From Candidatus Uhrbacteria bacterium (GTDB taxonomy: Bacteria > Patescibacteriota > Patescibacteriia > UBA9934), in the NCBI GenBank assembly GCA_903848275.1, contig CAINGB010000016.1:1-38652 (forward strand): a stretch of 38,652 bases of DNA, written 5' to 3'. Positions 26,000 through 38,652 of the stretch are shown one piece after another. The notes under the pieces were generated by a model. It did not search any database. It saw only the letters and a list, made by a program, of their open reading frames with translations, and had not been told where the DNA came from. Numbering within the stretch: the stretch's first letter is position 1; the number at the start of each line of letters is the position of its first letter. The position numbers and the translations under genes are program-made.

Positions 26000-26017
26000 A
26001 AGCAAAACTAGAGGGGG

Positions 26018-26878
26018 CTAGAGATTGATGCTCGTAATATACTCCTTTAAGGCCAAAGCGCGCGAACGCATGGCTGGAAGTTTAGTATTGTTGAGAGCTG
26101 CAAAGGCGGGGCGTGGCGCTGGTCGCGGGAACTCGCTGCCGAGAACGGGAATGCGTGGAGTGGCTGAAGGGGCGAGGGCGAAAATTTCTTCCGCGAACTG
26201 GTACCAGGTGACGCCGGGGCCTGGGTTGACGAGGTGATAGATGCCGGTTGGTGTGTTCGCTGTTATGAGGCGCAGGGTTTCCGTAGCGATGTCGACAGTG
26301 TAGCTTGGCATGCCGACTTCTTCGTTAACGATGCGCAGTTCTGGTTTGGTTTTGGCGAGGCTAGTGATGAGCTCGACGAAACTCTGCTTGGCGGCACTGG
26401 AAGTGCCAGCTGGGCCGAAGATTTTACTCATACGGCAGAGCAGATAACGGGCGCCAGAATCAATAACAAACTTCTCCCCCGCTGCTTTAGTTTCTCCGTA
26501 TTTCGAGATTGGATTAGTTATGTCATCTTCGGCGTAGCCATCGATTTTGTTACCAGCGAAAACGTAGTCCGTGCTGTAATGGACCAAGAGGGCGTCGATG
26601 CTTTTGGCGGCAGTGGCTAGGTACTTGGGACCGAGAGCATTAATGGCGTAAGCAATGGGATAGACAGCAGCGTCTTCGGCTTTGTCGACCAGGTTATAAG
26701 CGGCTGCGTTGACGATGACGTCGGGCTGATGTTCGGCGATATACGACGAAACCGCGGCCTCGTCGGTGATATCGAGCTCTTCGCGTTCGGTGGCGAGAAC
26801 GTCATGACCTGCGGCGGTGAAGACGGCTAGAAGCTGCGAACCAAGGTTGCCGTGGGCACCGGTGAGTAATATTTTCAT
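26018..26878 (-). CDS. rfbD: dTDP-4-dehydrorhamnose reductase
   Basis: 286 residues, usual length. Nucleotide loop LLTGAHGNLGSQLL (GxxGxxG, about 4-17), STDYVFAG (about 106-113), and the YxxxK pair in ISKYGETKAAGE (about 130-141). It reduces dTDP-4-keto-rhamnose with NAD(P)H to give dTDP-L-rhamnose. Order on the strand is rfbB-rfbC-rfbD, with a solo REP end filling the gap to rfbC. rfbA, which makes dTDP-glucose, is not in the window. Confidence 0.94.
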   Translation of the reverse strand: MKILLTGAHGNLGSQLLAVFTAAGHDVLATEREELDITDEAAVSSYIAEHQPDVIVNAAAYNLVDKAEDAAVYPIAYAINALGPKYLATAAKSIDALLVHYSTDYVFAGNKIDGYAEDDITNPISKYGETKAAGEKFVIDSGARYLLCRMSKIFGPAGTSSAAKQSFVELITSLAKTKPELRIVNEEVGMPSYTVDIATETLRLITANTPTGIYHLVNPGPGVTWYQFAEEIFALAPSATPRIPVLGSEFPRPAPRPAFAALNNTKLPAMRSRALALKEYITSINL

Positions 26879-26881
26879 AGC

Positions 26882-26919
26882 AAATTCGCAAAATTCCCGA
26901 TTCCCGACCTGACCCCTTT
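26882..26919 (-). repeat. Solo REP end at the rfbC stop codon
   Basis: Identical over 38 nt to the transposon ends at 14946-14983 and 15829-15866. It begins directly after the rfbC TAA (26922-26920) and ends 3 nt before the rfbD start, in the same orientation as the copy at murB. No transposase is attached. Confidence 0.9.
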
Positions 26920-27468
26920 TTAAAAAGGTAAATTCAAGTCAGCGAAAGCAGGGGCGGCGGCGTCACGGGGTGAGAGTAAAGGGGCCTGATTGTCGATGAG
27001 GGGCCAGGTGACGTTGAAGGCGGGGTCGTTCCAGGCCACGTTGCCGTCACCGGCTTTGTCGTAGGTTTCCGTGCATTTGTAGACGACGTCGCAGTCGGTC
27101 AGGGCATAGAAACCGTGGGCGATGCCGGGTGGGAGCCAGAGCATTTGATGATTGTCGGCCGAGAGCTCGAGGCCGAACCATTGTTTGTAAGTAGACGAGT
27201 CGCGGCGGAGGTCAACGGCGACGTCAAAGATGCGACCACGACTGCAACGGACTAGCTTGCCCATGGCTTTGGGTGGAAGCTGAAAGTGTAGGCCGCGCAA
27301 GACGCCTTGGACTGACGTCGATTGATTGTCTTGATTGAAGACTGTCGGCAAGCCGAGGGCGGCGAATTTGTCCGCGTTGAAAGATTCGAAGAAAGCGCCA
27401 CGGTCATCAGCGAGAACGTCAGGTGAAATAATGACGACGTCGTTTAATGTGGTTTTTTCGATTTTCAT
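26920..27468 (-). CDS. rfbC: dTDP-4-dehydrorhamnose 3,5-epimerase
   Basis: 182 residues from MKIEKTTLNDVV (27468), supported by an AGGAGGGGG Shine-Dalgarno about 5 nt upstream; the ATG at 27492 would fall in the upstream hairpin. Cupin-fold signatures: FNQDNQSTSVQGVLRGLHFQ (His in GLHFQ is the base, about residue 62), the partner Asp in VAVDLRRDS, and PPGIAHGFYAL. It epimerises C3 and C5 of the 4-keto sugar. The TAA stop abuts a solo REP end. Confidence 0.95.
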   Translation of the reverse strand: MKIEKTTLNDVVIISPDVLADDRGAFFESFNADKFAALGLPTVFNQDNQSTSVQGVLRGLHFQLPPKAMGKLVRCSRGRIFDVAVDLRRDSSTYKQWFGLELSADNHQMLWLPPGIAHGFYALTDCDVVYKCTETYDKAGDGNVAWNDPAFNVTWPLIDNQAPLLSPRDAAAPAFADLNLPF

Positions 27469-27483
27469 AAAGCCCCCTCCTAA

Positions 27484-27503
27484 CTCCCCCATACCTGGGG
27501 GAG
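27484..27503. repeat. G/C hairpin between rfbB and rfbC
   Basis: CTCCCCCA (27484-27491), 4-nt loop, TGGGGGAG (27496-27503). It lies in the 40-nt gap upstream of the rfbC Shine-Dalgarno. Palindromes of this CTCCCCC/GGGGGAG type are widespread in bacteria. It may affect mRNA stability or rfbC initiation. Confidence 0.6.
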
Positions 27504-27508
27504 GGTTG

Positions 27509-28513
27509 TTATTTGCCGAACTGTTGCGAGTGCCAAGAACGGTAGATGCTGCTGTCCTTGATTGGCCGCCACCAAGCTTCGTTTTTACGGTACCATTCTA
27601 CCATATCGCGTAAACCTTCTTCGAATGTTTGACGTTGCGTCCAGCCGAGCTCGCGGGTGATTTTGCTGTGGTCGATGGCGTAGCGTTTGTCTTGGCCAGG
27701 GCGGTCGTTAATGTGGACCAACATGGTTTCGCTCAAACCCATGACACGAATGAGGGTTTTCGCGGTTTCCAGCACGGAGAGTTCGGAGTTGCCGCCCATC
27801 ATGTAAGTTTCACCAACGGTGCCGCGTTCGAGGATAGCTAAGACGCCAGCGCCGTGGTCGCGAGCATGAATCCAGTCGCGTACTTGCGTGCCGTCGCCGT
27901 GAATGGTAAGTGGTTTGCTTTCGAGGAGGTTGGTGATGGCAATGGACAGGAACTTTTCTGGGTACAAGTACGGGCCGTAGTTGTTGGTGCAGTTACTGAT
28001 GGTGGCGCGGAGTCCGTGAGTGTCGATGGCAGCGCGAACGAGATGATCCGCCGCAGCTTTGGTGGCGCTGTAAGGGTTGCGGGGTGAGTACGGCGTGGCT
28101 TCCGTGAATTTGGGATCATTGGCTTCGAGTGAGCCAAAAACTTCGTCGGTGCTGACTTGATGAAAGCGTTTGTTATATTTGACGCAGGCGTCGATGAGGC
28201 GCTGGGTGCCCAAAATGTTGGTCATGATGAACGGCTCGACGTCCGTAATACTGCGGTCAACGTGAGTTTCTGCCGCGAAGTTAATGACGGCGTCGACGGT
28301 TTGCACCAAGCTGTCGACTAGCTCTTTGTTGGTAATGGAGCCGTAGCAAAATTTATAACGAGGGTGAATTTGGAAGTCGAGCGTGGTGGTCAAATTGCCA
28401 GCGTAGGTCAAGGCATCCAAGTTGACGATATCCCAATCTGGACGCTCGGCCAGAACCGTGCGAATGAAGTGAGATCCAATAAAGCCGCAACCGCCTGTCA
28501 CCAAGAGTTTCAT
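27509..28513 (-). CDS. rfbB: dTDP-glucose 4,6-dehydratase
   Basis: 334 residues, extended SDR family. NAD loop TGGCGFIGSHFIRTVL (about 6-21), AAETHVDRSI (about 80-89), catalytic Thr-Asp-Glu in VSTDEVFG (about 119-126), and the YxxxK pair in NPYSATKAAADHLVRA (about 147-162). NCTNNYGPYLYPEKFLS is the substrate loop. It converts dTDP-glucose to the 4-keto-6-deoxy sugar, first of the three rhamnose enzymes here. A nucleotidyltransferase gene of another family precedes it by 12 nt. Confidence 0.96.
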   Translation of the reverse strand: MKLLVTGGCGFIGSHFIRTVLAERPDWDIVNLDALTYAGNLTTTLDFQIHPRYKFCYGSITNKELVDSLVQTVDAVINFAAETHVDRSITDVEPFIMTNILGTQRLIDACVKYNKRFHQVSTDEVFGSLEANDPKFTEATPYSPRNPYSATKAAADHLVRAAIDTHGLRATISNCTNNYGPYLYPEKFLSIAITNLLESKPLTIHGDGTQVRDWIHARDHGAGVLAILERGTVGETYMMGGNSELSVLETAKTLIRVMGLSETMLVHINDRPGQDKRYAIDHSKITRELGWTQRQTFEEGLRDMVEWYRKNEAWWRPIKDSSIYRSWHSQQFGK

Positions 28514-28525
28514 AGTTTTTGAACT

Positions 28526-28996
28526 TTACTGGGCGCCCATCAAAACGTCAATGGCACCAGCGGGAATATGCTTGCGCCAGTCGCTGTTGCCGGCGGCTTT
28601 TTTGGCCCGAATGTCGTCGCTCGAAATGCCTGGGACAGGCACGATTTTCTTGGTCTGGACGCCTAAACCTTCGAAGATAGCGCGAATTTCCTCGCGGCCA
28701 CTCCACACATACGGCTCGCTGCCGCCGGCTTCGTCGAGTACACGCTTGGCCCAGGCCACGTCTTCCCCACCGTCGCGGACAACAACGATAGTAGCGTCCA
28801 TGATGTCGCGAGCGAGCAAGGCAGCGCTAATCATTTCGCGGCGTTGCTCCACGGTGTAGGGCGCGTCGGGCGTCAATTTGCCTTCGTCGCAAATGACAAT
28901 GGTGACGTTGCCGCAGGTTTTAATCATGCCTTGGACGACCATGAGATGGCCTTCGTGAAAGGGTTGGAACTTGCCGGGGAAGATGCAGGTGGACAT
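28526..28996 (-). CDS. NMN adenylyltransferase-like nucleotidyltransferase
   Basis: 156 residues from MSTCIFPGKFQPFHEGHLM (28996); the frame extends to 29068 but that part lies in low-complexity repeats. The (H/T)xGH motif is in GKFQPFHEGH (about 8-17) and the second phosphate motif in PGISSDDIRAKKAAG (ISSxxxR). These mark the HxGH cytidylyl/adenylyltransferase family; the opening GxFQPFHxGH is most like archaeal-type NadM or related bifunctional enzymes. It may make NAD (cofactor of rfbB) or another nucleotide conjugate. It is not RfbA, which has a different fold and a GGxGTRL motif. It lies 12 nt upstream of rfbB. Confidence 0.8.
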   Translation of the reverse strand: MSTCIFPGKFQPFHEGHLMVVQGMIKTCGNVTIVICDEGKLTPDAPYTVEQRREMISAALLARDIMDATIVVVRDGGEDVAWAKRVLDEAGGSEPYVWSGREEIRAIFEGLGVQTKKIVPVPGISSDDIRAKKAAGNSDWRKHIPAGAIDVLMGAQ

Positions 28997-29091
28997 AAGT
29001 AATAGATTAATGGCGGGGTGGTTGAGTAGCGGGGTGGCGGGGTGGTTGGCTCGATGAACTTCTGCCACTACCCAGCTACGCTCCTACCCTG
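28997..29091. repeat. Intergenic low-complexity G/C repeats
   Basis: The 13-mer GGCGGGGTGGTTG occurs at 29012-29024 and 29036-29048. A roughly complementary C/T-rich stretch (CCACTACCC..CTACCCTGC) follows at about 29066-29098 with its own internal repeat of CTACCCAGCT. It can fold as a ragged stem between the DUF362 stop and the nucleotidyltransferase start. No gene or clear promoter seen. Confidence 0.5.
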
Positions 29092-29979
29092 CTACCCAGC
29101 TCGGATAAACTTTCGTCTCAACTGCTCAACTTGTAACGGTGGGACGTCAATCTTGCTCATGTCGATGACGCCGAGGCCCCGCTCGCTACAGTTTACCAGA
29201 TATCCGATGGCGTAGGGATCGTAGCCCATGAGCGTGGCGCCGACAGCGTCGACAGCGACAGCGTCGAGGCCAGCTAGCACAAGGTTCATGGCGACTGGCG
29301 TGCCTTCTACTGGACCAGCACCTTCCATGGCGAGTACAGCGTCGACGATGGCGATGTGACACGGAAGTTCTTGATAAAGCTGGGCGATGCTTTGGTGGCA
29401 GGCGGTCATGCCCTCGTTCTGCAACCAGGGAAAGCGGGCCCAAACGCGACCGTGAGTGCCAATGCGAGGTGGTACCAACCAAGTGCCCAGCGACCAGTTA
29501 GTCACAGTGAGGCCGACACCCAAGTCGCGGTGCGTTTTCATGGGCGCCAAGGAGATGCGGAGGTCGCAGTCGCTGACGGTTTTGGAACGATGGATTTCCT
29601 GCAAGCTGCCGTCGGCGCGGACGGTGTGGCCGACCACTGCTTGGTCGTCGTTGAGGTCGACCAAGGCGACGCGTTGATAGTCCTCGAGCAGGCGGTCGTA
29701 GCCGAAGTTAGTAAAAGCAGGCTTGGTGCCGTAGTGCGCCGCGTCGCCAACGAAGATATCGGCTCGTGAGTACTGACGGATTTCGTCGACTAGGCCGCGG
29801 ACAGCGTCGACGTGAGTGGCGGCTAGCGGCAGCTCGTAATGCTCCAGGTTTACTTTAATGAAAATGCGCTTAGCGGCCTTGACCAAGTCGACAAAACTCT
29901 CACCCAAACTGTGCACGGCTTCGCGCACAGCCTTGCGCCGATTGTCGCCCTCTACCAATATGACTTTAGGCATGCTCAT
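29092..29979 (-). CDS. DUF362-domain protein
   Basis: 295 residues from MSMPKVILVEGDNRRKAV (29979). The frame extends to 30168 without motif, crossing the promoter of the next gene, so the inner start is chosen. DUF362 features: FIKVNLEHYELPLAATHVDAVRGLVDEI (about 40-68), GDAAHYGTKPAF, LISLAPMKTHRDLGVGLTVTNWSLG (conserved Lys-Thr-His, about 147-170), and the C-terminal GLDAVAVDAVGATLMGYDP. Some family members carry ferredoxin-like clusters; no CxxC array is present here. Enzymatic role unknown. It may be co-transcribed with the downstream sugar genes, though a repeat-rich spacer intervenes. Confidence 0.85.
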   Translation of the reverse strand: MSMPKVILVEGDNRRKAVREAVHSLGESFVDLVKAAKRIFIKVNLEHYELPLAATHVDAVRGLVDEIRQYSRADIFVGDAAHYGTKPAFTNFGYDRLLEDYQRVALVDLNDDQAVVGHTVRADGSLQEIHRSKTVSDCDLRISLAPMKTHRDLGVGLTVTNWSLGTWLVPPRIGTHGRVWARFPWLQNEGMTACHQSIAQLYQELPCHIAIVDAVLAMEGAGPVEGTPVAMNLVLAGLDAVAVDAVGATLMGYDPYAIGYLVNCSERGLGVIDMSKIDVPPLQVEQLRRKFIRAG

Positions 29980-30022
29980 AATGACCCTATGGTACCGTGG
30001 GGACGGATTTGGGGCAATAAGT

Positions 30023-30051
30023 TGGACAAGGGGCGGCGTTTCCGCTACCTT
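30023..30051 (+). promoter_or_regulatory. Promoter of orphan cassette A
   Basis: TGGACA (30023-30028), 17-nt spacer, TACCTT (30046-30051). The same promoter, with conserved flanks (GCAATAAGT before; GCG.AGTTT after), recurs at 31305-31333, which supports function better than the match to consensus does. Confidence 0.6.
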
Positions 30052-30097
30052 GGGCGCAGTTTCGTTGCCATTCAGGCAGCTGACTAAGAGGTGAATC

Positions 30098-30700
30098 ATG
30101 TCCGAGACCCAGACCAACAAGGCCCCGTCCTTTCGCGAAGTTCTGCTCCACCTGCACGCCGTGTCCACCCTCGACTTTTCGCAGAGACCTTCAAGCGAGT
30201 TTCCCTGCGGCTACGGCACGGCCATGCTGTACGGCTTGGTCATCCGAACCATGACGGATGACGGGCAGAACCTGCTCGACCAACAAGAACGGGAACGCCG
30301 ACTGGCTGGTGGCCGCTGGTTGGGCTTGCACGACAAGGCCGTTCTGACCACGTTCGACGACCAGCCGTGCTGCCCACCGAACAACGGCCGCGAGATCGTC
30401 AGCCTGTTCCGCCAGTGCGTCGAGCTCGACCCGCTGTTCCTGGCCTGCTTTGACCCGCTGGCCGTGAACTTCATCCTGAAGCACGACCCGCTGGTTGGTT
30501 CGTTCCGTTGCCTGGTGCCGCTCGCCCTGCCGCCGGCTTGGTTGTTCGACGAGCACAGGCCGTGGACCAAGATGATTGCGGCTGGAGCCAAAATGGCCCA
30601 ATTGGCCAACACACCGGAGTGCAACAACGAGACGACCGAGAATGCCATGTGGCGCGGCGTGCTCGAGGAGATGCTCGACAAGTACGAGCCGAGGGCGTAG
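30098..30700 (+). CDS. Orphan protein, paralogue A
   Basis: 200 residues, soluble in character, no family recognised. The Shine-Dalgarno AGAGGTG lies 4-10 nt before ATG. It is a paralogue of the 31380 gene: matching opening MSET.TN..P..RE.LLHL, central ELDP....LACF / KLDPILLAF, and closing LPP.WL....PW....AGA.M........EC.NE...AM.R.VL..MLD.YEP.A. The conserved Trp, Cys and Asp/Glu positions near the C-terminus suggest a folded domain under selection. It carries a Cys-Cys pair (QPCCPPN) absent in paralogue B. It is a single-gene unit with a terminator at 30717-30753. Confidence 0.75.
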   Translation: MSETQTNKAPSFREVLLHLHAVSTLDFSQRPSSEFPCGYGTAMLYGLVIRTMTDDGQNLLDQQERERRLAGGRWLGLHDKAVLTTFDDQPCCPPNNGREIVSLFRQCVELDPLFLACFDPLAVNFILKHDPLVGSFRCLVPLALPPAWLFDEHRPWTKMIAAGAKMAQLANTPECNNETTENAMWRGVLEEMLDKYEPRA

Positions 30701-30716
30701 AAGACACGTACAAACT

Positions 30717-30753
30717 CAGTCATCGGCGCGTAACGCTGGTGACTGTTTGTTTT
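30717..30753 (+). terminator. Terminator of paralogue A
   Basis: CAGTCATCGGCG (30717-30728), loop CGTAA, CGCTGGTGACTG (30734-30745; G-U pairs), then TTTGTTTT. Nearly the same hairpin ends the paralogue B unit at 32279-32315. Confidence 0.85.
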
Positions 30754-30761
30754 GGGCAATA

Positions 30762-30789
30762 TTGACCAATGGATAGATTGTGTTATTAT
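30762..30789 (+). promoter_or_regulatory. Promoter of a short gene-less unit
   Basis: TTGACC (30762-30767), 16-nt spacer, TATTAT (30784-30789). Only about 60 nt separate it from a terminator, and no reading frame lies between. Confidence 0.6.
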
Positions 30790-30795
30790 GTACTT

Positions 30796-30854
30796 ACATT
30801 GGCTTCGCAAGAGGCTCCGAGAATACCCCGGCTCATGCTGGGGTATTCGTTTTT
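30796..30854 (+). ncRNA. Possible small RNA (about 59 nt)
   Basis: Predicted transcript from about 30796 to the T tract at 30850-30854. It has a short 5' hairpin (GGCTTCGCAAGAGGCTCC region) and a strong 3' hairpin, but no start codon with a frame. It also runs antisense to the last codons of the PemK-like gene (stop at 30833). Alternatives: a cassette that lost its gene, or a terminator for readthrough. Confidence 0.4.
30821..30854. terminator. Terminator hairpin overlapping the PemK stop
   Basis: GAATACCCCGGC (30821-30832), TCAT loop, GCTGGGGTATTC (one mismatch; 30837-30848), then GTTTTT on the plus strand. The PemK-like gene ends inside it on the other strand. Shares its core with the hairpin at 134-171. 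Confidence 0.75.
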
Positions 30855-31261
30855 ATGAGATCTATGAATGCAGCGTGCAGAAGTTCGAATTGGTCAACTG
30901 GTAATAAGCCAATCTTACGGATCAGTCGTTTAGCGCTGATGGTTCTAGCTTGGACAAGAACTGCTCGAGAAATTATTCCTTCACATTCCACAGGATGATA
31001 CCAGGTGCCCTCTTTCAAGCCAGACGTCGTTGGAATGATAAACAGCACATCTTTGCTGAACTTTTTAACAATTATAACTGGACGTTCAAAATTGTAATTC
31101 TTGCCATTTTCTTCGGAACCGATATTTTCTCCCAAGCTCGCCCACCAAACTTCTCTTTCATAAAAATACAGGCCAGGTCGCACGGAGAAATGTAGTTCTA
31201 TTTTCTTACTTGACCAGCCTATAAAGCGACGTACTTCCTCGATGATATATTCTGCTGACAT
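30833..31261 (-). CDS. PemK/MazF-like toxin endoribonuclease
   Basis: 142 residues. The core begins near residue 33: REVWWASLGENIGSEENGKNYNFERPVIIVKK, the MazF/PemK pattern (GxIWxxxLG...GxExxKxRPxxIV). It continues with DVLFIIPTTSG (the conserved Thr/Ser after the strand) and SRAVLVQARTISAKRLIRKIG, matching the late Q-x-R/I-xxxR-L segment. A 30-residue N-terminal extension precedes it. It would cleave mRNA, but no antitoxin frame is visible next to it, so it may be solitary or trans-controlled. TATTAT lies 9 nt before ATG (leaderless). AT-rich relative to its neighbours, and inserted between the two paralogous cassettes. Confidence 0.82.
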   Translation of the reverse strand: MSAEYIIEEVRRFIGWSSKKIELHFSVRPGLYFYEREVWWASLGENIGSEENGKNYNFERPVIIVKKFSKDVLFIIPTTSGLKEGTWYHPVECEGIISRAVLVQARTISAKRLIRKIGLLPVDQFELLHAAFIDLIKTNTPA

Positions 31262-31270
31262 AATGGCTCA

Positions 31271-31276
31271 ATAATA
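31271..31276 (-). promoter_or_regulatory. -10 box of the PemK-like gene
   Basis: TATTAT on the minus strand (31276-31271), 9 nt before the ATG at 31261; no Shine-Dalgarno. Confidence 0.5.
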
Positions 31277-31304
31277 CTTGGAGCTGCCACGAACGGCAAT
31301 AAGT

Positions 31305-31333
31305 TGGACAAGGCCAGCGCTTTCCGCTACTTT
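31305..31333 (+). promoter_or_regulatory. Promoter of orphan cassette B
   Basis: TGGACA (31305-31310), 17-nt spacer, TACTTT (31328-31333), conserved with 30023-30051 including spacer residues (CGCTTTCCGC against CGTTTCCGC). Confidence 0.6.
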
Positions 31334-31379
31334 AAGCGTAGTTTGGCTGCCATGGTGGTGGCTGACTATGAGGTGAGCA

Positions 31380-31973
31380 ATGTCCGAGACCAAGACCAAC
31401 ACGACCCCGACCTATCGCGAGATCCTACTGCACCTGACCGAGGTGTCGGCCATGAACTACAAGGATTTGCCCGAAGGTGTGATCCGCCACTACGGCACCC
31501 GCATGGTCTACCAAACGTTTTTGACCAGCGTGATGGTCAAACCGCCTTTCCCAAGCAAACCGAAATACGCGCGTTGGCTGCGCCTGGAGAGTGACCGAAT
31601 CGGCGTTCGGTTTGGCGGCCAAAATATCCGCATACCGAACAATGGCAACGGCGTCGACAAGCTGGTGGCAAATTGCCTGAAGCTCGACCCGATCTTGCTA
31701 GCCTTCACGGTCGAGTCGTTCGCCCGGAGAGTCATCGATGATGATGGCGTGACAAGCAAGGAGCTCCCCGCCTTAATTTTGATCAAGCTTCCGCCAGAGT
31801 GGCTGGGGGCCGACGGCAACCCTTGGGCCAGACTCGAGGAAGCAGGAGCCGAGATGGACAGGCGGACCGACACCAACGAGTGTTTCAACGAGGAGTCCGA
31901 TTACGCCATGCGGCGGCGGGTGCTGACCGCGATGCTCGACAGGTACGAGCCAAAGGCGGAGGCGACGTCATGA
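31380..31973 (+). CDS. Orphan protein, paralogue B
   Basis: 197 residues, soluble, no family recognised. The start follows GAGGTG, 4-9 nt upstream. It is similar to paralogue A at 30098 over the N-terminal 20 residues and the C-terminal 60 (LPPEWLG..PW.RLEEAGAEM, NECFNEESDYAM, MLDRYEPKA), with a more divergent middle. The promoter and leader are also duplicated, so the whole cassette was copied, not only the gene. Its TGA overlaps the ATG of a membrane-protein gene (ATGA), unlike paralogue A, which ends alone. A role with the membrane partner is possible. Confidence 0.75.
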   Translation: MSETKTNTTPTYREILLHLTEVSAMNYKDLPEGVIRHYGTRMVYQTFLTSVMVKPPFPSKPKYARWLRLESDRIGVRFGGQNIRIPNNGNGVDKLVANCLKLDPILLAFTVESFARRVIDDDGVTSKELPALILIKLPPEWLGADGNPWARLEEAGAEMDRRTDTNECFNEESDYAMRRRVLTAMLDRYEPKAEATS

Positions 31974-32260
31974 AGCAGCGACGCTTCTGGCAGACGGTTG
32001 GAGCGGTGCTATACTGGCACTGCGTGGCCGTATGGTGGGAGACAGGCATTGCCGGATTCGCGGCCTACGCGGTGGTGCTCGGCAACCTGGGCTACAGAGT
32101 GCTGGCGGTGGTCGACAGGTGGCCGGGCAATAACCTATACGTGTCCAACGACTCGCCACTCCTCTCACCCATGGCCATCGGCATGATGCTGCCGCTGGTC
32201 GTCGTCCTGAGCTACGACTTCATCCGGCTCTGGTACGGGGTCTGGCGCGGCGAGAATTAG
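31970..32260 (+). CDS. Small membrane protein coupled to paralogue B
   Basis: 96 residues starting MKQRRFWQTVGAVLYWHCVAVWW. ATG (31970-31972) overlaps the preceding stop as ATGA, and a GGCGGAGG stretch within the upstream gene provides a Shine-Dalgarno. Two to three hydrophobic segments: about 9-47 (GAVLYWHCVAVWWETGIAGFAAYAVVLGNLGY, two short spans) and about 70-88 (MAIGMMLPLVVVLSYDFIRLW). The outer loop carries PGNNLYVSNDSPLLSP. No family recognised. The end is followed by a terminator like that of paralogue A, so this gene may have been inserted into, or lost from, one copy. Confidence 0.65.
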   Translation: MKQRRFWQTVGAVLYWHCVAVWWETGIAGFAAYAVVLGNLGYRVLAVVDRWPGNNLYVSNDSPLLSPMAIGMMLPLVVVLSYDFIRLWYGVWRGEN

Positions 32261-32278
32261 GGACGACACGTACTCCTT

Positions 32279-32315
32279 CAGTCACTGGCGCGTAACGCCG
32301 GTGGCTGATTGTTTT
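32279..32315 (+). terminator. Terminator of the paralogue B unit
   Basis: CAGTCACTGGCG (32279-32290), loop CGTAA, CGCCGGTGGCTG (32296-32307; G-U pairs), then ATTGTTTT. Homologous to 30717-30753. Confidence 0.85.
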
Positions 32316-32469
32316 AACTTGATACGTATCATGTATGGCGCCTCGTTCTCGCAAGCGAGCTTCCGAACGAGCGACATGTATGGCGGCACGCGTGTGGCGA
32401 GCGAGCTCGCCGCGCGAGGCCGCGATCCATGTCCCCGCCGCTGCGCGGCGACGCCAGCTGGCGCTGGCT
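32316..32469. other. GC-rich, palindrome-dense DNA without a gene
   Basis: Contains GATACGTATC, CTCGTT-CTCGC-AA-GCGAG-(6 nt)-AACGAG (32342-32371), GGCGAGCGAGCTCGCCG (32396-32412; repeated at 32716-32732), CGCCGCTGCGCGGCG (about 32436-32450) and GCCAGCTGGC (about 32453-32462). CATGTATGGCG occurs twice (about 32331 and 32375). Open frames here run across the tRNA and lack start signals. Could be a structured RNA or remains of inserted palindromic units. Confidence 0.55.
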
Positions 32470-32526
32470 GGAACCACGAAAATACCAGGCCGAAGCCTGG
32501 TATTTTCGTGGTTCCGGGACATGGAT
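32425..32526. repeat. Interrupted inverted copy of the tRNA-Gln 3' end
   Basis: Arm 32470-32490 is the exact complement of 32495-32515 (21 bp, GGAACCACG... CCAGGC, loop CGAA). The right arm continues as GGGACATGGAT (32516-32526) inside tRNA-Gln. Its complement ATCCATGTCCC is found at 32425-32435, but displaced by 34 nt (32436-32469). The inner part acts as the tRNA terminator on the minus strand. Confidence 0.8.
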
Positions 32527-32582
32527 TCGAACCATGGTTCACGGCTTCAAAGGCCGCTGTCCTGCCGTTAGACGATCCCGGA
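32509..32582 (-). tRNA. tRNA-Gln (TTG)
   Basis: Acceptor TCCGGGA/TCCCGGA pairs fully; D arm GTCTAACGGCAGGAC; anticodon stem GCGGC/GCCGT around CTTTGAA gives anticodon TTG; T arm CATGG-TTCGAAT-CCATG; A73 and encoded CCA (32511-32509). Its 3' end is one arm of a long palindrome. Confidence 0.93.
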
Positions 32583-32613
32583 GTAGTTATTTGGCTAACC
32601 CTATTACCCGCCG

Positions 32614-32642
32614 ATTCTATACCAATTTTGTCATTGACGCAA
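32614..32642 (-). promoter_or_regulatory. Promoter of tRNA-Gln
   Basis: On the minus strand TTGCGT (32642-32637), 17 nt, TAGAAT (32619-32614). It overlaps the divergent tRNA-Thr promoter at 32634-32642. Confidence 0.55.
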
Positions 32643-32662
32643 GTCAAAAGCCTTGCTATTCT
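32634..32662 (+). promoter_or_regulatory. Promoter of tRNA-Thr
   Basis: TTGACG (32634-32639), 17 nt ending in TGC, TATTCT (32657-32662). The -35 boxes of the two divergent tRNA promoters overlap, so they may compete for polymerase. The leader to the tRNA is about 60 nt. Confidence 0.65.
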
Positions 32663-32728
32663 ACCCCCGTTCTCAGCACTCTCTCAGCAGCCCCCACCAA
32701 GCGTAGCGCAGACGAGGCGAGCGAGCTC

Positions 32729-32803
<75 letters not shown>

Positions 32804-32808
32804 GAAAC

Positions 32809-32832
32809 TCCCGATTCATTTCGGGATTTTTT
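32809..32832 (+). terminator. Terminator of tRNA-Thr
   Basis: TCCCGA (32809-32814), loop TTCATT, TCGGGA (32821-32826), then TTTTTT. Confidence 0.85.
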
Positions 32833-32858
32833 GTTTTATAGCGGAGAGAACTTTATGC

Positions 32859-32864
32859 TATACT
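32859..32864 (+). promoter_or_regulatory. Extended -10 box of tspO
   Basis: TGCTATACT (TATACT at 32859-32864) then 6 nt then ATG at 32871; transcription would start on the start codon. Confidence 0.7.
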
Positions 32865-32870
32865 TCCCTC

Positions 32871-33368
32871 ATGAAATCTTCAAATAAAATTATGCGAACT
32901 CGCAACGCTTTAAGTTTACTCAGCTTCATTGTAATGAGCGAACTCGCCGGCATCATCGGTTCCCTCTTCACCATGTCGTCTATTCCGACTTGGTATGCCA
33001 CTTTAGTTAGACCGGCACTCAATCCCCCGGGGTGGGTATTTGGCCCAGTATGGACGTTGTTGTACTTGCTGATGGGTGTGGCCGCTTGGTTGGTGTGGCG
33101 TAAGGGTTGGGGGAAGGTCGATGTAAAAATAGCGCTCGGTTTGTTTTCGCTCCAACTAATATTAAACGCGGCCTGGTCGATTATATTCTTTGGTGGGCAT
33201 AATCCGGCCGTGGCGCTGATAGAAATCTTAGCATTGTGGCTGGCTATACTCGGCACCATGCTCGCCTTCGGTCGAGTCTCGAAGCCGGCTGCTTGGCTGC
33301 TAGTCCCCTACTTACTTTGGGTCAGCTTTGCGACTTACTTGAATTTTGCTATTTGGACGCTTAATTAA
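32871..33368 (+). CDS. tspO: TspO/MBR family membrane protein
   Basis: 165 residues with five hydrophobic helices, the TspO fold. Family residues: PTWYATLVRPALNPPGWVFGPVWTLLYLLMG (about 43-73, the PxxxPPxxxFxPVWxxLY signature), WLVWRKG, LNAAWSIIFFGGHNP (about 103-117, xNxxWxxxFF), and the final aromatic-rich helix YLLWVSFATYLNFAIW. TspO binds tetrapyrroles and is linked to stress responses and porphyrin handling. glutaredoxin follows after 1 nt, so the two are co-transcribed. Leaderless start. Confidence 0.93.
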   Translation: MKSSNKIMRTRNALSLLSFIVMSELAGIIGSLFTMSSIPTWYATLVRPALNPPGWVFGPVWTLLYLLMGVAAWLVWRKGWGKVDVKIALGLFSLQLILNAAWSIIFFGGHNPAVALIEILALWLAILGTMLAFGRVSKPAAWLLVPYLLWVSFATYLNFAIWTLN

Positions 33369-33369
33369 T

Positions 33370-33624
33370 ATGAAACCAGTCACTATCTATTCCACCCCCA
33401 CTTGCCCATACTGCATCCGCGCGAAGCAACTCTTCACTAGCTTGAACGTCGCCTTTACCGACGTCGACCTGAGTGCTGATCCAGCCCTGGCCGAAGAGTT
33501 GAATAACAAGCACAACTGGCGAACTGTGCCGATGATTTTTATTGGTGACGAGTTTGTAGGCGGCTATGACGACGTGATAGCGTTGCAAGCGAGGGGTGAG
33601 CTGATGAGTAAACTAGAAGGTTAG
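33370..33624 (+). CDS. Glutaredoxin
   Basis: 84 residues from MKPVTIYSTPTCPYCIRAK (33370), normal for a small dithiol glutaredoxin. Active site CPYC (about 12-15), cis-Pro in RTVPMIFIGDEFVGGYDD (TVPxxFI, about 52-69). It reduces disulfides using glutathione or a substitute thiol. One nt after tspO. Its 3' end overlaps the convergent fic gene by 4 nt, and no terminator follows directly. A second, orphaned glutaredoxin 3' end lies beyond fic at 34744-34803, followed by the likely original terminator. Confidence 0.93.
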   Translation: MKPVTIYSTPTCPYCIRAKQLFTSLNVAFTDVDLSADPALAEELNNKHNWRTVPMIFIGDEFVGGYDDVIALQARGELMSKLEG

Positions 33625-34673
33625 ATTTTACGATAGCGTGTAGTTCTACCCTGGCCAATTCGTTCGAGTTTTTTAAGTCTCAACAATACGTCAATACCTT
33701 GTGAGACAGTTGGTCTAGCGACGTTAGTCGCCTCGGCAATTTCGCCAGCGGTTGCTTCGTCGATGTTTTCAAAATAGCGCCAAACCACCAATTGCTTTGG
33801 CGAGAGAATCTTCTCGATGTTCTCATGCGAAAGAAGTTCAATGGCCCGACGAGCTTGTTCCAGAGAAACACTAAGAAAGAATTCTAGCCACGGAGTGATG
33901 TTCTCTTGTTTTGTGCCTAGAGTTGATTGACTCTTACGCAGGGCTATATAATATTCAGCTTTGTTATCTTCGATCAATTTTTCGTGTGAAATATAGGATG
34001 CATATTCGTAACCAGCTCGCAGCAATAACAGGTTAGTGAGAACACGCGAAAGACGACCATTGCCATCTTGAAATGGGTGAATAGCTAAAAATTCTACAAC
34101 AAAGTTACTAATAATTAGTAAGGGATGTTCCTGCTTTTGCTGTAGAGCTTCTGTCGTCCAGGCAATGAGTTCCGTCATTTGTTGAGGTACTAAATAGGCT
34201 GGAGTAGTTTTGAAGATGACGCCGATCGACTTGCCTAATTCGTCGAACATCTCCACGGAGTTTTCTAATTTCTTATATTCTCCACGGTGCCGCTCATCTT
34301 TATTAGTATACTGCAAAAGGTCTCGATGAAGTTGCTTAATTACTCCCTCGGTTAGCGGGATATGCCTCCAAGAAAGGAAAATATTCTCGAGCAACTCGAA
34401 ATAACCCAGTACTTCTTGTTTATCACGATCAGTGAATTTCTGGAGTACGAGTCCACGAATAAACTTCTCGACATCTTCGTCGGACAAGCGAGAACCCTCA
34501 ATACGAGTCGAGGCCCCAGTTGAAGTCACTAAAACAGAGCGCTTCAAACGACCAAGCACCTGCGAGTTTAATTTTGCTCCGCCGATCCATTGACCCTTCA
34601 GTTGATCAATCTGACTCAACAGTCCTAGAACCGACTTAGGCAGCTGAGAGAGACGTTTAGTACGGATATCCAT
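33621..34673 (-). CDS. Fic-domain protein with winged-helix tail
   Basis: 350 residues. Fic core HPFQDGNGRLSR (about 196-207) has the complete HPFx(D/E)GNGR motif, predicting AMP (or other nucleotide) transfer to a protein hydroxyl. An inhibitory helix motif (S/T)xxxE(G/N) is at the N-terminal side, STRIEGS (about 55-61), so self-inhibition within one chain is expected (class II). HLHRDLLQYT-type flap region QLHRDLL (about 114-120). The C-terminal 70 residues form a winged helix (EATAGEIAEATNVARPTVSQGIDVLLRLKKL). An inverted repeat covers its promoter, suggesting self-repression. It is AT-richer than its surroundings. Confidence 0.92.
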   Translation of the reverse strand: MDIRTKRLSQLPKSVLGLLSQIDQLKGQWIGGAKLNSQVLGRLKRSVLVTSTGASTRIEGSRLSDEDVEKFIRGLVLQKFTDRDKQEVLGYFELLENIFLSWRHIPLTEGVIKQLHRDLLQYTNKDERHRGEYKKLENSVEMFDELGKSIGVIFKTTPAYLVPQQMTELIAWTTEALQQKQEHPLLIISNFVVEFLAIHPFQDGNGRLSRVLTNLLLLRAGYEYASYISHEKLIEDNKAEYYIALRKSQSTLGTKQENITPWLEFFLSVSLEQARRAIELLSHENIEKILSPKQLVVWRYFENIDEATAGEIAEATNVARPTVSQGIDVLLRLKKLERIGQGRTTRYRKI

Positions 34674-34680
34674 AAATGTT

Positions 34681-34719
34681 TAATCATATATTATGACTAT
34701 GGGAGATTATATATGATTA
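34681..34719. promoter_or_regulatory. Inverted repeat over the fic promoter (putative operator)
   Basis: Arms TAATCATATATTAT (34681-34694) and ATTATATATGATTA (34706-34719) are complementary at 12 of 14 positions, spaced by 11 nt. The upstream arm contains the -10 TATAAT of fic, so a bound dimer would block transcription. Confidence 0.65.
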
Positions 34720-34734
34720 TGATATTTTGGACAA
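34706..34734 (-). promoter_or_regulatory. Promoter of fic
   Basis: On the minus strand TTGTCC (34734-34729), 17-nt spacer, TATAAT (34711-34706). Transcription would start near 34699, giving a leader of about 25 nt. Confidence 0.65.
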
Positions 34735-34743
34735 ATAGAACTT

Positions 34744-34803
34744 TACGACGACGTGACGGCGCTGCAGGCGAAGGGTGGGCTGATGGGTACGTTAAATGGC
34801 TAA
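34744..34803 (+). pseudogene. Orphaned 3' end of a glutaredoxin gene
   Basis: The frame reads YDDVTALQAKGGLMGTLNG then TAA, matching the end of the intact glutaredoxin YDDVIALQARGELMSKLEG (14 of 19 residues). No upstream part of the gene remains; the fic promoter region begins about 10 nt before. It is followed 22 nt later by a terminator. It marks the old gene end displaced when the fic segment arrived, or a partial duplication. Confidence 0.85.
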
Positions 34804-34824
34804 TATTAAGTTAATTTTGTGTAT

Positions 34825-34849
34825 AACGCCTTGACAAAAGGCGTTTTTT
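34825..34849 (+). terminator. Terminator whose loop contains a -35 box
   Basis: AACGCCTT (34825-34832), loop GACAA, AAGGCGTT (34838-34845), then TTTTG. It would end glutaredoxin transcripts. The loop and the T tract overlap the promoter at 34831-34859. Confidence 0.75.
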
Positions 34850-34859
34850 GTGCCATTAT
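34831..34859 (+). promoter_or_regulatory. Promoter of the 34917 gene
   Basis: TTGACA (34831-34836), 17-nt spacer ending TGC, CATTAT (34854-34859). Predicted leader of about 50 nt with GGGAG Shine-Dalgarno. Confidence 0.7.
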
Positions 34860-34916
34860 TCGCAGCGAGTACCGCATTTCGCGAACTGCTCAAACAACCT
34901 GCCAAAGGGAGAAATC

Positions 34917-35501
34917 ATGGCTGATCAAAATGTAACAAGAGTGAACGACGATGGGAATTGGACCCCCATCGACGAGCTCGCGAAGCTGCTGGCTCACGAT
35001 GTCCCGTTCACGGAGGACGAGGTGCTCGAAACGTGCGAGGTACTCAGCACTCAGCTCATCGAGGCCGTGGTGTGGAGTGACCGTGACAAGATCGCCGAGT
35101 TCGCCAATGGCGTATTCACAGCTCTTGACTACGCGAAGCCGATCATCGACCGAGCCTACCTCGTGGCTGCCTGCCGAACGCTGAACATGTTCGCCGGTGA
35201 AATGGTGGACAGAATGCGACCGCCCCAGCAGGATGAGTGGGCGCGCAGTGACCCGGCCATCATGGCGATCATCGACGTGCTCTGCGCCAAGTTGATGGAG
35301 ATGTCCGTCCTCGCCGACCTCGTCAAGCAGGAGCCAGATCTTGTAAGGCAGATCGACCGCATGGAGATCGGCGGCCTCGTCAGTTGCGAGTACGCTGCTC
35401 CGCACAAGAGGTACGTCCAGCTCACACCAGCTGGGCAAGATCTGCAGGATGCCGCCTGTCTCGCAGCCAAGAAGGCACAAAACGAGGCCCGCGTGGTCTG
35501 A
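34917..35501 (+). CDS. Orphan protein with winged-helix-like tail
   Basis: 194 residues. ATG 34917 is set by GGGAGA 5-10 nt upstream; the frame runs back to 34848 but overlaps the promoter there. The first 150 residues are helical and acidic, with no family match (PIDELAKLLAHDVPFTEDEV, AACRTLNMFAGEMVDRM). The C-terminal segment MEIGGLVSCEYAAPHKRYVQLTPAGQDL resembles the wing of MarR/PadR-like DNA-binding domains (short hairpin then LTPAG), a visual similarity only. Own promoter and terminator; GC-rich third positions like the other orphan cassettes. Confidence 0.7.
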   Translation: MADQNVTRVNDDGNWTPIDELAKLLAHDVPFTEDEVLETCEVLSTQLIEAVVWSDRDKIAEFANGVFTALDYAKPIIDRAYLVAACRTLNMFAGEMVDRMRPPQQDEWARSDPAIMAIIDVLCAKLMEMSVLADLVKQEPDLVRQIDRMEIGGLVSCEYAAPHKRYVQLTPAGQDLQDAACLAAKKAQNEARVV

Positions 35502-35506
35502 AGCTA

Positions 35507-35537
35507 GCGGCTCGTCTCTCTCTGAGGGACGGGCCGC
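35507..35537 (+). terminator. Terminator of the 34917 gene
   Basis: GCGGCTCGTC (35507-35516) pairs with GACGGGCCGC (35528-35537; one G-U), followed by GTACTTATTT. Confidence 0.7.
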
Positions 35538-35553
35538 GTACTTATTTACCAGC

Positions 35554-35591
35554 AAATTCGTAAAATTCCCGATTCCCGACCTGACCCCTTT
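35554..35591 (-). repeat. Solo REP end at the TPR gene stop codon
   Basis: Matches the 38-nt REP end at 37 positions (GCG to ACG near the inner side). It starts 1 nt after the TAA of the TPR gene (35595-35593), same orientation as the copies at murB and rfbC. Confidence 0.88.
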
Positions 35592-35592
35592 T

Positions 35593-36396
35593 TTAACCAC
35601 TTTTCTTTTTGGTTCGTAGCTCGGCGATGCGGGCTTCGAAGTCGGCGATTTTGGCGTTGTCGGGGTTCACTTCACGGAGATGGTCGAGGGATGAAGTAGC
35701 GGCGTGGACGTCACCAGTTGTGATAGCTGTGTCGATGTAGAAGTCGAGATATTTTGGATTGTTGGGGCTAATGTCGAGGGCGAGTTTGTAGGAGGCGAGA
35801 GCTTCGTCTAGCTTACCTTCGGCTTCTGCGACTTCGCCGAGCGAGGCGCAAACGCTGGCATCTTTGGGTGAGAGGCGGAGGAGGAAATTAAACGTTTCGC
35901 GAGCACCGGGATAGTCCTTGTTGAGTAAATACAAGCGGCCCAAGTGTTCGTAAGCGGGAATGTTTTTAGGGTCGTGGCTGACGACTTCGATGAGCTTCTT
36001 TTCGGCGGCGTCGTAATGACCTTCGTCAATTAGAGTCTCCGATTCGCGAATGAGGCCGCGTAAAATTTCAGGATTATGAGCGACAGTTATGCCGCTTTTT
36101 TGACGGTCGGCGTAACGGCGTTCAATGGCGGTTAGTTTACCGGCCACACGCCGGAAGCTGTCCTGGATTTTGCCACCAAGTGGCTTAAAAACATCACGTT
36201 GCAAACCGGCCAAATGTTCGCCACCCAAACGCTCCACGCGTTGCTTGAGAATGGCGTACTTGAGTTCTTTAGTTTTGGCTTCTTTGCTTGACCCCGGATC
36301 TACCACGCGAATCTGTGGCAGCTTGCGAACGGCCAACCAACCGATCATGATGATCGAAAGGGCGATAACGGCAATGAGAGTTATTTCGAAGATCAT
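35593..36396 (-). CDS. Membrane-anchored TPR protein
   Basis: 267 residues. Anchor at about 3-24 (FEITLIAVIALSIIMIGWLAV), a basic, helical linker (about 35-100, with LKYAILKQRVERL), then at least three TPR-like repeats: LIDEGHYDAAEKKLIEVVSHDPKN, YLLNKDYPGARETFNFLLRLSPKD and AEGKLDEALASYKLALDISPNN, with a fourth around HAATSSLDHLREVNPDN. The soluble part is probably cytoplasmic. It would scaffold a membrane-associated assembly; partner unknown. ATGA overlap with tpiA (4 nt) implies coupled translation. The stop codon is followed by a solo REP end. Confidence 0.85.
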   Translation of the reverse strand: MIFEITLIAVIALSIIMIGWLAVRKLPQIRVVDPGSSKEAKTKELKYAILKQRVERLGGEHLAGLQRDVFKPLGGKIQDSFRRVAGKLTAIERRYADRQKSGITVAHNPEILRGLIRESETLIDEGHYDAAEKKLIEVVSHDPKNIPAYEHLGRLYLLNKDYPGARETFNFLLRLSPKDASVCASLGEVAEAEGKLDEALASYKLALDISPNNPKYLDFYIDTAITTGDVHAATSSLDHLREVNPDNAKIADFEARIAELRTKKKSG

Positions 36397-37160
36397 ACGT
36401 GAGTAGCTGTCATTACTGCGGTACCAGCTTTAATGATGGCGCTGAATTCGTGAATCTTGAGGCTCGCTCCGCCGACCAGAACGCCGTCGACTTCCTGCTC
36501 GCGGAGAATGGCGAGGGCGTTGCTGGCGTCAACCGAGCCACCGTAGAGTACAGCGATGTCATCAATGACGGAACCGAGGCCGACGAGTAAATGACGAATG
36601 AGGCTGTGAGCTTCGCTGATTTGGGCGGCGGTAGCAGGTGAGGCGGCACCAATGGCCCAAACTGGTTCGTAAGCGATGAGGCACGGAGTTTTGCGGGGGA
36701 ACGCGACGTCAGTGAGAGCGCTCGTGATTTGGCGAGTGATGACGGCATTAGTCTGATCAGCGGCGCGCTCGGTAGCAGTTTCGCCAACACAGATAATGGG
36801 CGTGAGGCCAGCCGCGAGAGCCTCGAGTATTTTCTCGTGAACATCGTCGCCCGACTCCCCCGCCGCGCGGCGCTCGGAATGACCGATGAGAGTGTGAGTG
36901 CAACCAACGTCGACCAATTGGGCGGCAGCAACCTCGCCGGTGTGAGCACCGAGGCCAGTTGAAGCCACATTTTGCGCGCCGAGATTAACGGGCGTTTTCT
37001 TGATGAGTTTTTGGACGTCGGGTAAGGCGGTGAAAGTTGGACAGAGAATTATCTCGGGCAGCACGTCATCGAGGCTCAAGCCATGCAAAACTCCTTTAAC
37101 GAGCGCACTAGTTTCGCGGGTAGTGAGTTGCATCTTGTAGTTACCGACGATGTACTTCAT
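36393..37160 (-). CDS. tpiA: Triosephosphate isomerase
   Basis: 255 residues, usual length. Active-site residues: Asn and Lys in GNYKM (about 6-10), His in IGHSERR (about 93-99), Glu in AYEPVWAIG (about 163-171), and phosphate loop LYGGSVDASNA (about 209-219). It interconverts dihydroxyacetone phosphate and glyceraldehyde 3-phosphate. It lies 5 nt downstream of the M16 peptidase gene and overlaps the TPR gene, forming a minus-strand operon. Confidence 0.97.
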   Translation of the reverse strand: MKYIVGNYKMQLTTRETSALVKGVLHGLSLDDVLPEIILCPTFTALPDVQKLIKKTPVNLGAQNVASTGLGAHTGEVAAAQLVDVGCTHTLIGHSERRAAGESGDDVHEKILEALAAGLTPIICVGETATERAADQTNAVITRQITSALTDVAFPRKTPCLIAYEPVWAIGAASPATAAQISEAHSLIRHLLVGLGSVIDDIAVLYGGSVDASNALAILREQEVDGVLVGGASLKIHEFSAIIKAGTAVMTATHV

Positions 37161-37165
37161 ACAAA

Positions 37166-38437
37166 TTATATTTTGATGTGTTGGAGAACAGCGGCGTCAG
37201 TTTTGAAGGGACCGACAACGCCAATACTGAGGCGCGACATGACCAAGATTTCTTTAGCGACGCGAGCAATGTCGGCCACGGTGACGGCGCGTAGTTCCGC
37301 GATTTTTTGCTCGAGTGTTTTAACGTTGCCGAAGAATAATTCCTGACGAGCGAAGAACTCGGCTTTAGCCGATGAGTCTTCGAGGGCTAGCTTCATGACA
37401 CCTTCGGCGTGATCCTTAGCCTTCTTGAGTTCGTCGGCAGTGACACCTTTAGCGGCCATCTTTTTGATTTCCTTGATTATGACGTCACAAGCTAAGCCGA
37501 TGCGCTTGGCGTCGAGACCGGCCCGCACTACGAAGGTGCCGACTTCGTCGTAAGCGTCGACCATGCTGCGAACGGTGTAGCAAAGACCGCGCTTTTCGCG
37601 GACTTCGATGAACAAGCGGGAGGACATGGAGCCACCGAGAATGCTCGACAACAAGCGAATAGCTGGTTGATCAGCATGGCCACGACCGACTGTCGGGAAA
37701 CCAAAAGCCAACTGGATTTGTTCGACTGGCTTAACCTGGCGATTAACGCGCGGTGTAGCGCGAGGCTTGGCTAGGGCGAAAGCTGGACCAGCGGCAGGGA
37801 TGACTTTGCCCTTAGCTTTACCGAAAGTTTTTTCGAGCTGTTCGATGGCGTCAGCAGGAATTTTGCCGGAGAGCACGATGACCGTGTTGCTTGGGACGTA
37901 ATATTGTTCCTTGTATGCCATGACGTCGGCGCGCTTCATGGCCAACATGGTTTTGGCGGTACCGGCGATGTTCTTGCCGAGGGCGTGGCCCTGGAACATG
38001 GCGTCTTCGAGCAAGTCCTCCACATGCATGATGGGGTTCTCTTCGTACATTTTGATTTCTTCGATGATGACTTGGCGTTCCTTCTTCATCTCCTTGAGGT
38101 CGAAGAGAGAGTTCAGCAACATGTCGCTTAACACGTCCATGGCAATGCCGGCTTTGCTGCCGTCGATTTTGATGTAGTAACCGGTTAAATCTTTGCCGGT
38201 GTAGGCGTTGTACTCGGCGCCGTACTGGTCGATGAGTTGGGTCAGTTCGAGCGTTGACGGACGCTTTTTGGTGCCCTTGAACATGAGGTGCTCCAAGAAA
38301 TGCGAGCCACCCCAAACTTTAGTGTTCTCGTTGCGTGAGCCGACTTTGTAGAGCACTAAAATGGTCATGGCCTCCGTGCCGAGCATGGGGACGACGTGGA
38401 CGCGAGTACCGTTTTTTAGCTTAGTTACTTCATTCAT
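37166..38437 (-). CDS. M16-family zinc metallopeptidase
   Basis: 423 residues, the size of one M16B subunit. Inverted zinc motif HxxEH in GGSHFLEHLMFKGT (about 45-58), with the distal Glu in VIIEEIKMYEENP (about 119-131). The C-terminal half carries the Arg-Tyr pair in VREKRGLCYTV (about 281-291), typical of processing peptidase-like active subunits. It would degrade or process peptides in the cytoplasm; only one subunit gene is seen, so it may act as a homodimer. glyS lies 23 nt upstream on the same strand. Confidence 0.93.
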   Translation of the reverse strand: MNEVTKLKNGTRVHVVPMLGTEAMTILVLYKVGSRNENTKVWGGSHFLEHLMFKGTKKRPSTLELTQLIDQYGAEYNAYTGKDLTGYYIKIDGSKAGIAMDVLSDMLLNSLFDLKEMKKERQVIIEEIKMYEENPIMHVEDLLEDAMFQGHALGKNIAGTAKTMLAMKRADVMAYKEQYYVPSNTVIVLSGKIPADAIEQLEKTFGKAKGKVIPAAGPAFALAKPRATPRVNRQVKPVEQIQLAFGFPTVGRGHADQPAIRLLSSILGGSMSSRLFIEVREKRGLCYTVRSMVDAYDEVGTFVVRAGLDAKRIGLACDVIIKEIKKMAAKGVTADELKKAKDHAEGVMKLALEDSSAKAEFFARQELFFGNVKTLEQKIAELRAVTVADIARVAKEILVMSRLSIGVVGPFKTDAAVLQHIKI

Positions 38438-38460
38438 AAGACCGAAAGGACCACTGGGAC

Positions 38461-38652
38461 CTATTGTGAAAGTTTTTGTTTAAAGTATTCCTCCAGGGCG
38501 GCTATAGCCACCCGTTCTTGCAACATGGTGTCGCGATCGCGAACGGTCACGGCTTGGTCGTTGAGTGTCTCGAAGTCGACGGTGACGCAGTATGGCGTAC
38601 CGATTTCATCTTGGCGACGATAGCGCTTGCCGATGGATTGTGTTTCGTCGTA
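38461..38652 (-). CDS. glyS: Glycyl-tRNA synthetase, C-terminal part
   Basis: The right window edge cuts this gene; 63 C-terminal residues are visible, ending [10 protein letters not shown] then TAG (38463-38461). Motif-like end: [27 protein letters not shown], then [15 protein letters not shown], which is the anticodon-binding domain signature of the single-chain (alpha2) glycyl-tRNA synthetases, as opposed to the two-subunit type. It charges tRNA-Gly. The remainder, including the class II catalytic core, lies outside the window. Confidence 0.9.

What the first reader, a model, noticed from the sequence alone, without database searches (positions are those of the whole stretch)
33370..34849. 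A Fic gene has split the glutaredoxin gene from its old 3' end and terminator
Beyond fic, 60 nt encode YDDVTALQAKGGLMGTLNG, clearly the tail of a second glutaredoxin, and a terminator follows 22 nt later. The intact glutaredoxin lacks a terminator and overlaps fic. The simplest history is an insertion that brought fic together with a replacement glutaredoxin 3' end, as when an element reconstitutes its target gene; the alternative is deletion after tandem duplication.
Basis: partly seen in the sequence, partly recalled or inferred. Interest (0 to 1): 0.62.

Follow-up and report, generated by a model that had tools for sequence, protein, structure and literature searches.

The report
Mobile Fic gene beside glutaredoxin remnant
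In a bacterium with a very small genome, a wandering Fic gene sits against the end of a glutaredoxin gene, and beyond it lie the last 19 codons of a second, different glutaredoxin; this is the scar of gene swapping inside an acquired gene island, an ordinary kind of genome rearrangement.

Summary
Beyond fic (34673-33621, minus strand), bases 34744-34803 match the grx 3' end at 45 of 60 positions, in frame to the stop, far above chance.

New facts: (1) A congener (G002) has the locus empty: everything from about 32837 to 35564 (tspO, grx, fic, remnant, a 194-aa ORF) is missing between tRNA-Thr and the TPR gene, so grx itself belongs to a lineage-specific island. (2) fic is mobile cargo: nine of its 12 closest relatives lie convergent to a tRNA-Ser gene, six of 44 fic loci have a tRNA-Ser 3'-end fragment 125-134 bp upstream of fic, and some share an end with a large-serine-recombinase element family. 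The window copy has none of those ends. (3) The 'terminator' is also the -35/-10 region of the next gene and recurs five times in this genome; it is not clearly grx's own. (4) The two grx ends differ with dN/dS about 0.25, so both probably diverged as working genes.

Best reading: recombination with an incoming, diverged grx plus fic replaced most of a resident grx and left its last 19 codons. Two grx copies with a later deletion remain possible. No donor was found.

The parts
32729..32803 (+). tRNA-Thr(GGT), conserved left neighbour of the island
   Evidence: ARAGORN; 97% identical over 32729-32836 in G002
32837..35564 (.). lineage-specific island absent from congener G002
   Evidence: collinear blocks end at 32836 and restart at 35565 against L218 5463/5474; tRNA-Thr(GGT) close to the TPR gene in G012, G013, G015
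32871..33368 (+). tspO (TspO/MBR family)
   Evidence: Pfam E 4.1e-53
33370..33624 (+). intact glutaredoxin gene, 84 aa
   Evidence: Pfam E 1.9e-22
33621..34673 (-). fic, 350 aa, Fic domain plus C-terminal region; stop codon overlaps the grx stop
   Evidence: Pfam Fic E 9.7e-17; PADLOC SoFic model E 1.5e-41; motif HPFQDGNGRLSR in the sequence
34674..34743 (-). fic upstream region with promoter TTGTCC-17-TATAAT (34734-34706), conserved among relatives, cut short at the grx remnant
34744..34803 (+). remnant: last 19 codons and stop of a second glutaredoxin
   Evidence: 45/60 nt to 33565-33624, score 67 against at most 30 in shuffles
34825..34859 (+). hairpin with U-run that is also a TTGACA-17-CATTAT promoter for the next ORF
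   Evidence: related copy at C30
34917..35501 (+). 194-aa orphan ORF, GC 0.60
   Evidence: no Pfam or NCBIfam match

Best explanation
An island next to tRNA-Thr held a glutaredoxin gene. DNA from a relative carrying a diverged grx followed convergently by fic recombined with it. The incoming DNA joined by homology at or upstream of the 5' part of grx, and its other end joined illegitimately inside the resident grx. The outcome is one intact grx that is foreign at least in its 3' part, fic with its own promoter, and the last 19 codons of the resident grx left beyond fic. Shown: the remnant, the empty locus in a congener, the mobility of fic, mild constraint on the remnant. Inferred: the donor, the order of events and the mode of recombination.
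For: Remnant in frame to the same stop, 45/60 nt. dN 0.195, dS 0.787; neutral change keeps as few aa changes and an open frame in 4-5% of trials. Whole block absent from G002. fic is patchy and phylogenetically scattered, and sits at 3' ends of other genes elsewhere. No second grx in the genome. GC of remnant 0.58 resembles the following ORF (0.60); intact 3' end 0.48 resembles tspO and fic. One event suffices.
Against: No donor with grx-fic and no island with grx but without fic was found. The constraint test is weak (57 coding nt). The GC contrast rests on six bases. The remnant could equally come from a second full copy.
Confidence: 0.5

Rival explanations
1. Two diverged grx genes stood side by side in the island (paralogues or two successive acquisitions). 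fic landed between them, and a deletion from just behind the fic promoter into the second grx left only its last 19 codons.
For: Explains two diverged, once functional ends and needs no donor with grx-fic. Serial insertion next to tRNA-Thr is plausible, since the locus is empty in a congener.
Against: No tandem grx pair among 73 genomes of the order, and only one grx match in this genome. Needs several steps. The deletion must stop within a few bases of the fic -35 box.
Confidence: 0.26
2. fic sits in a minimal site-specific element whose attachment site is the grx 3' end; integration supplied a replacement 3' end and displaced the old one, with the recombinase acting from elsewhere in the genome.
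For: Restored target plus displaced 3' fragment in the same orientation is the signature of such elements (PMC4383910). fic relatives show it with tRNA-Ser. The genome has two large serine recombinases on other contigs.
Against: No recombinase and no known element end at the window fic. Other fic units end 125-134 bp upstream of fic, here it is 71 bp. None of 44 fic loci and neither close grx locus repeats the grx-fic arrangement. The identical core is only about 10 nt.
Confidence: 0.12
3. Assembly artefact: strain variants of the locus were joined in a mixed assembly.
For: The genome is in 48 contigs with 2.4% estimated contamination.
Against: The longest identity between the two grx ends is about 10 nt, too short for a usual assembly join. 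Synteny with G002 is clean on both sides.
Confidence: 0.04

Closest known systems
Homology-facilitated illegitimate recombination (HFIR; PMC3240628)
   Same: Joins foreign DNA by homology at one end and illegitimately at the other, giving coupled insertion and deletion of about 1 kb, the scale seen here.
   Different: The homologous exchange tract and the donor are not identified; natural competence of this host is untested.
Genomic islands that restore their target gene and displace a fragment (Islander/TIGER islands; PMC4383910, PMC12884075; the phage e14/icd case is known to me from general knowledge)
   Same: Intact target gene, insert, displaced 3' fragment in the same orientation.
   Different: No recombinase inside; target is a glutaredoxin gene that is itself part of an acquired island; arrangement seen once only.
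Large-serine-recombinase elements at tRNA-Ser ends found here in related genomes (L193-L200)
   Same: Their tandem neighbours include fic units related to the window fic, convergent to the target gene.
   Different: The window fic has neither their left end (CCGCCA-GGACAATTTCTTATCG) nor their right end, and is not at tRNA-Ser.
SoFic-type Fic proteins (phage-defence candidates in PADLOC)
   Same: Fic domain and length; PADLOC SoFic model E 1.5e-41 over residues 45-347.
   Different: 44.8 bits against the NCBIfam SoFic cut-off of 550; activity untested.

Membership tests
Island that reconstitutes its target gene | intact target and displaced 3' fragment in the same orientation on either side of the insert | tested here: met
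   grx 33370-33624, remnant 34744-34803
Island that reconstitutes its target gene | integrase gene on board, or own ends of a known element | tested here: not met
   only fic lies between; no family ends found; recombinases only on other contigs
Island that reconstitutes its target gene | same element recurs at the same target | tested here: not met
   0 of 44 fic loci beside grx; the two nearest grx loci lack fic
Island that reconstitutes its target gene | identical core shared by both attachment sites | tested here: inconclusive
   GACGACGTGA, 10 nt, in a conserved coding stretch
HFIR product | homologous exchange at one end | not testable with these tools
   donor unknown
HFIR product | microhomology of 3-10 bp at the illegitimate joint | tested here: inconclusive
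   stop codons overlap in TTAG at the left joint; parent sequences of the right joint unknown
Decay of a tandem duplicate | relatives with two complete tandem grx genes | tested here: not met
   none in 73 genomes of the order, one grx in the own genome
tRNA-Ser serine-recombinase element family | left end CCGCCA-GGACAATTTCTTATCG and right end at CCGCCA | tested here: not met
   no match in window 26000-38652
SoFic | Fic domain with the HPFx(D/E)GNGR motif | tested here: met
   Pfam Fic E 9.7e-17; HPFQDGNGRLSR in the translation
SoFic | NCBIfam SoFic cut-off score | tested here: not met
   44.8 bits against 550

The most novel reading that the evidence does not exclude
fic travels in this bacterial class as a minimal non-autonomous integrative unit that enters gene 3' ends (tRNA-Ser elsewhere, a protein gene here), carries a replacement 3' end for its target and is moved in trans by large serine recombinases.
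Probability: 0.1. Interest if true: 0.65.

Novelty: new member of a known kind. Interest (0 to 1): 0.33.

Why it matters
It is a readable scar of how bacteria with tiny genomes trade single genes: the old 3' end survives as a signpost of what was replaced. The wider lead is that the same fic family rides beside a serine-recombinase element family at tRNA-Ser ends; a 2014 paper on islands (PMC4383910) stated that serine recombinases were not known to target tRNA genes. I did not establish whether that has changed since.

Tried and rejected
Looked for tspO next to grx in relatives: none among the loci fetched from 73 genomes of the order. Looked for grx in viral contigs: none. Looked for tRNA-Ser repeats and element ends around the window fic: none. 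Tested whether direct repeats flank fic more often than control genes: 7/44 against 5/173, P 0.003, but one control hit (L119) is part of the same tRNA-repeat array and the repeats are of several kinds, so this is moderate support only. The tRNA-Ser enrichment (14 in 433 kb against 1 in 199 kb) rests on one background count: P is 8e-8 at that rate but 0.2 at five times the rate. The side and orientation bias (13 of 14, P 1.6e-7 against a chance of 1 in 4) is sturdier, though the loci are related and not independent. An earlier count said 10 of the 12 closest relatives have a tRNA-Ser; the count is 9. For the two serine-recombinase loci of this genome I compared only a tRNA end with the rest of the locus: tRNA-Trp gives one 31-nt match (81%) just before the recombinase end, not followed up. 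Literature searches found no description of these elements, in an open-access library only.

Full report
Observation. The window holds tspO (32871-33368), grx (33370-33624) and, convergent to it, fic (34673-33621, minus). The grx and fic stop codons overlap in TTAG. Bases 34744-34803 encode YDDVTALQAKGGLMGTLNG-stop and match grx 33565-33624 at 45/60 nt and 13/19 residues. The local score is 67 against at most 30 in 500 shuffles.

The terminator. The hairpin at 34825-34845 with its U-run folds well (z -3.15), but its loop holds TTGACA, and CATTAT follows after 17 nt, before the 194-aa ORF at 34917. A related stretch stands behind an unrelated gene on contig C30. The composite pattern occurs five times in the genome and never in the reversed control; on contig C27 it precedes GC-rich ORFs. 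It may well terminate transcription, but there is no reason to call it the old grx terminator. The nearest grx genes (G046, G053) end with their own, different hairpins (read by eye).

The empty locus. Congener G002 is collinear with the window on both sides: window 26917-32836 matches L218 51-5463 (in several blocks) and window 35565-38652 matches L218 5474-8579. The 2.7 kb between, with tspO, grx, fic, remnant and the 194-aa ORF, is absent. In G012, G013 and G015 a tRNA-Thr(GGT) gene also lies within about 0.6 kb of the TPR gene, without room for such an island. The block is therefore most likely an acquisition next to tRNA-Thr in this lineage. grx was acquired too and is not an old host gene that fic invaded.

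fic is mobile. Homologs with E up to 1e-80 occur in 64 of 381 genomes of the class, scattered over families; a copy from another family (G184) is 77% identical, one in the same family (G019) 73%. Of the 12 closest relatives (69-78%) nine have a tRNA-Ser gene on the downstream side of fic, pointing towards fic, and one (G388) has tRNA-Asp there. Across 44 fic loci, 13 of 14 tRNA-Ser genes have that side and orientation. In six loci a tRNA-Ser 3'-end fragment lies 125-134 bp upstream of fic, with degenerate versions visible in two more. The fic upstream region has a conserved block, kept in the window up to 71 bp, where the grx remnant starts.

Company of fic elsewhere. In G061 and G015 the fic unit stands near elements that encode a 446-450 aa large serine recombinase (Pfam Resolvase, Recombinase and zinc ribbon). 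Copies of that recombinase in G008, G004, G002 and G015 are 93-95% identical to the G061 one. Their left end is CCGCCA|GGACAATTTCTTATCG, joined to a tRNA-Ser gene in the two G008 copies, or to the right end of a preceding (in places decayed) element. Their right end is GTGTACACCGCCA|, followed by different sequence in different genomes. fic units share the left end but have the tRNA fragment as right end. That these recombinases move the fic units in trans is inference. The window fic has neither end and no recombinase near it.

History of the grx end. The two grx ends differ at 15 sites, 13 of them transitions, with dN 0.195 and dS 0.787 (Nei-Gojobori). Random changes of the same number give as few amino-acid changes with an open frame in 4-5% of trials. 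This favours divergence as two working genes before truncation, but the stretch is short. GC of the remnant (0.58) is like the ORF behind it (0.60), whereas the intact 3' end (0.48) is nearer to tspO (0.49) and fic (0.43); this is suggestive only. No second grx exists in the genome at E 0.001.

Mechanism. I prefer replacement by recombination: incoming DNA with a diverged grx and fic exchanged with a resident grx in the island and left its last 19 codons. HFIR, with homology at one end and 3-10 bp of microhomology at the other (PMC3240628), would do this, and Patescibacteria are thought to take up DNA and to hold many islands (PMC12455944). That the host is of that group is inferred from its genome of about 1 Mb and from the records that its grx matches. 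Deletion between two grx copies is the main rival. A site-specific element at grx is the most novel reading and has little direct support.

Possible consequence (inference). tspO-grx transcripts meet no terminator before fic and would run antisense through fic to the hairpin beyond the remnant, which could damp fic expression.

Verdict. A genuine, well-read scar, partly explained, of modest interest. The fic units and serine-recombinase elements at tRNA-Ser ends are the better lead.

Noticed in passing
L200 1558-7133; L199 397-5512; L193; L194; L195 (related genomes): A family of small elements with a large serine recombinase whose left end joins the CCA end of tRNA-Ser genes (CCGCCA|GGACAATTTCTTATCG) and whose right end is GTGTACACCGCCA|; found in tandem arrays, recombinases 93-95% identical across genera, apparently recent movement.
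   Followed up: partly
window 34831-34859; contig C30 32571-32599; contig C27 39133-42274: Composite hairpin/promoter (TTGACA in the loop, T-run in the spacer, ATTAT as -10) in five exact copies, in the cases read before GC-rich orphan ORFs.
   Followed up: partly
window 30098-30700 and 31380-31973: Two related GC-rich orphan ORFs (MSETQTNKAPSFREVLLHL / MSETKTNTTPTYREILLHL) without NCBIfam match; a homolog lies at the same place in G002 (L218 3293-3856).
   Followed up: no
window 30833-31261 (-): MazF/PemK-like toxin gene between the two orphan ORFs, in a low-GC patch; absent from the G002 counterpart region as read from ORFs.
   Followed up: no
L092 3374-6041: A contig classed as viral (IMG/VR) carries a serine recombinase directly before a fic 66% identical to the window's, close to methyltransferase and helicase genes.
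   Followed up: no
L192 1754-11223 (contig C1 of the own genome): tRNA-Trp followed by a set of genes that looks like a type I restriction-modification system and then a large serine recombinase (451 aa); names of the former by eye only.
   Followed up: no
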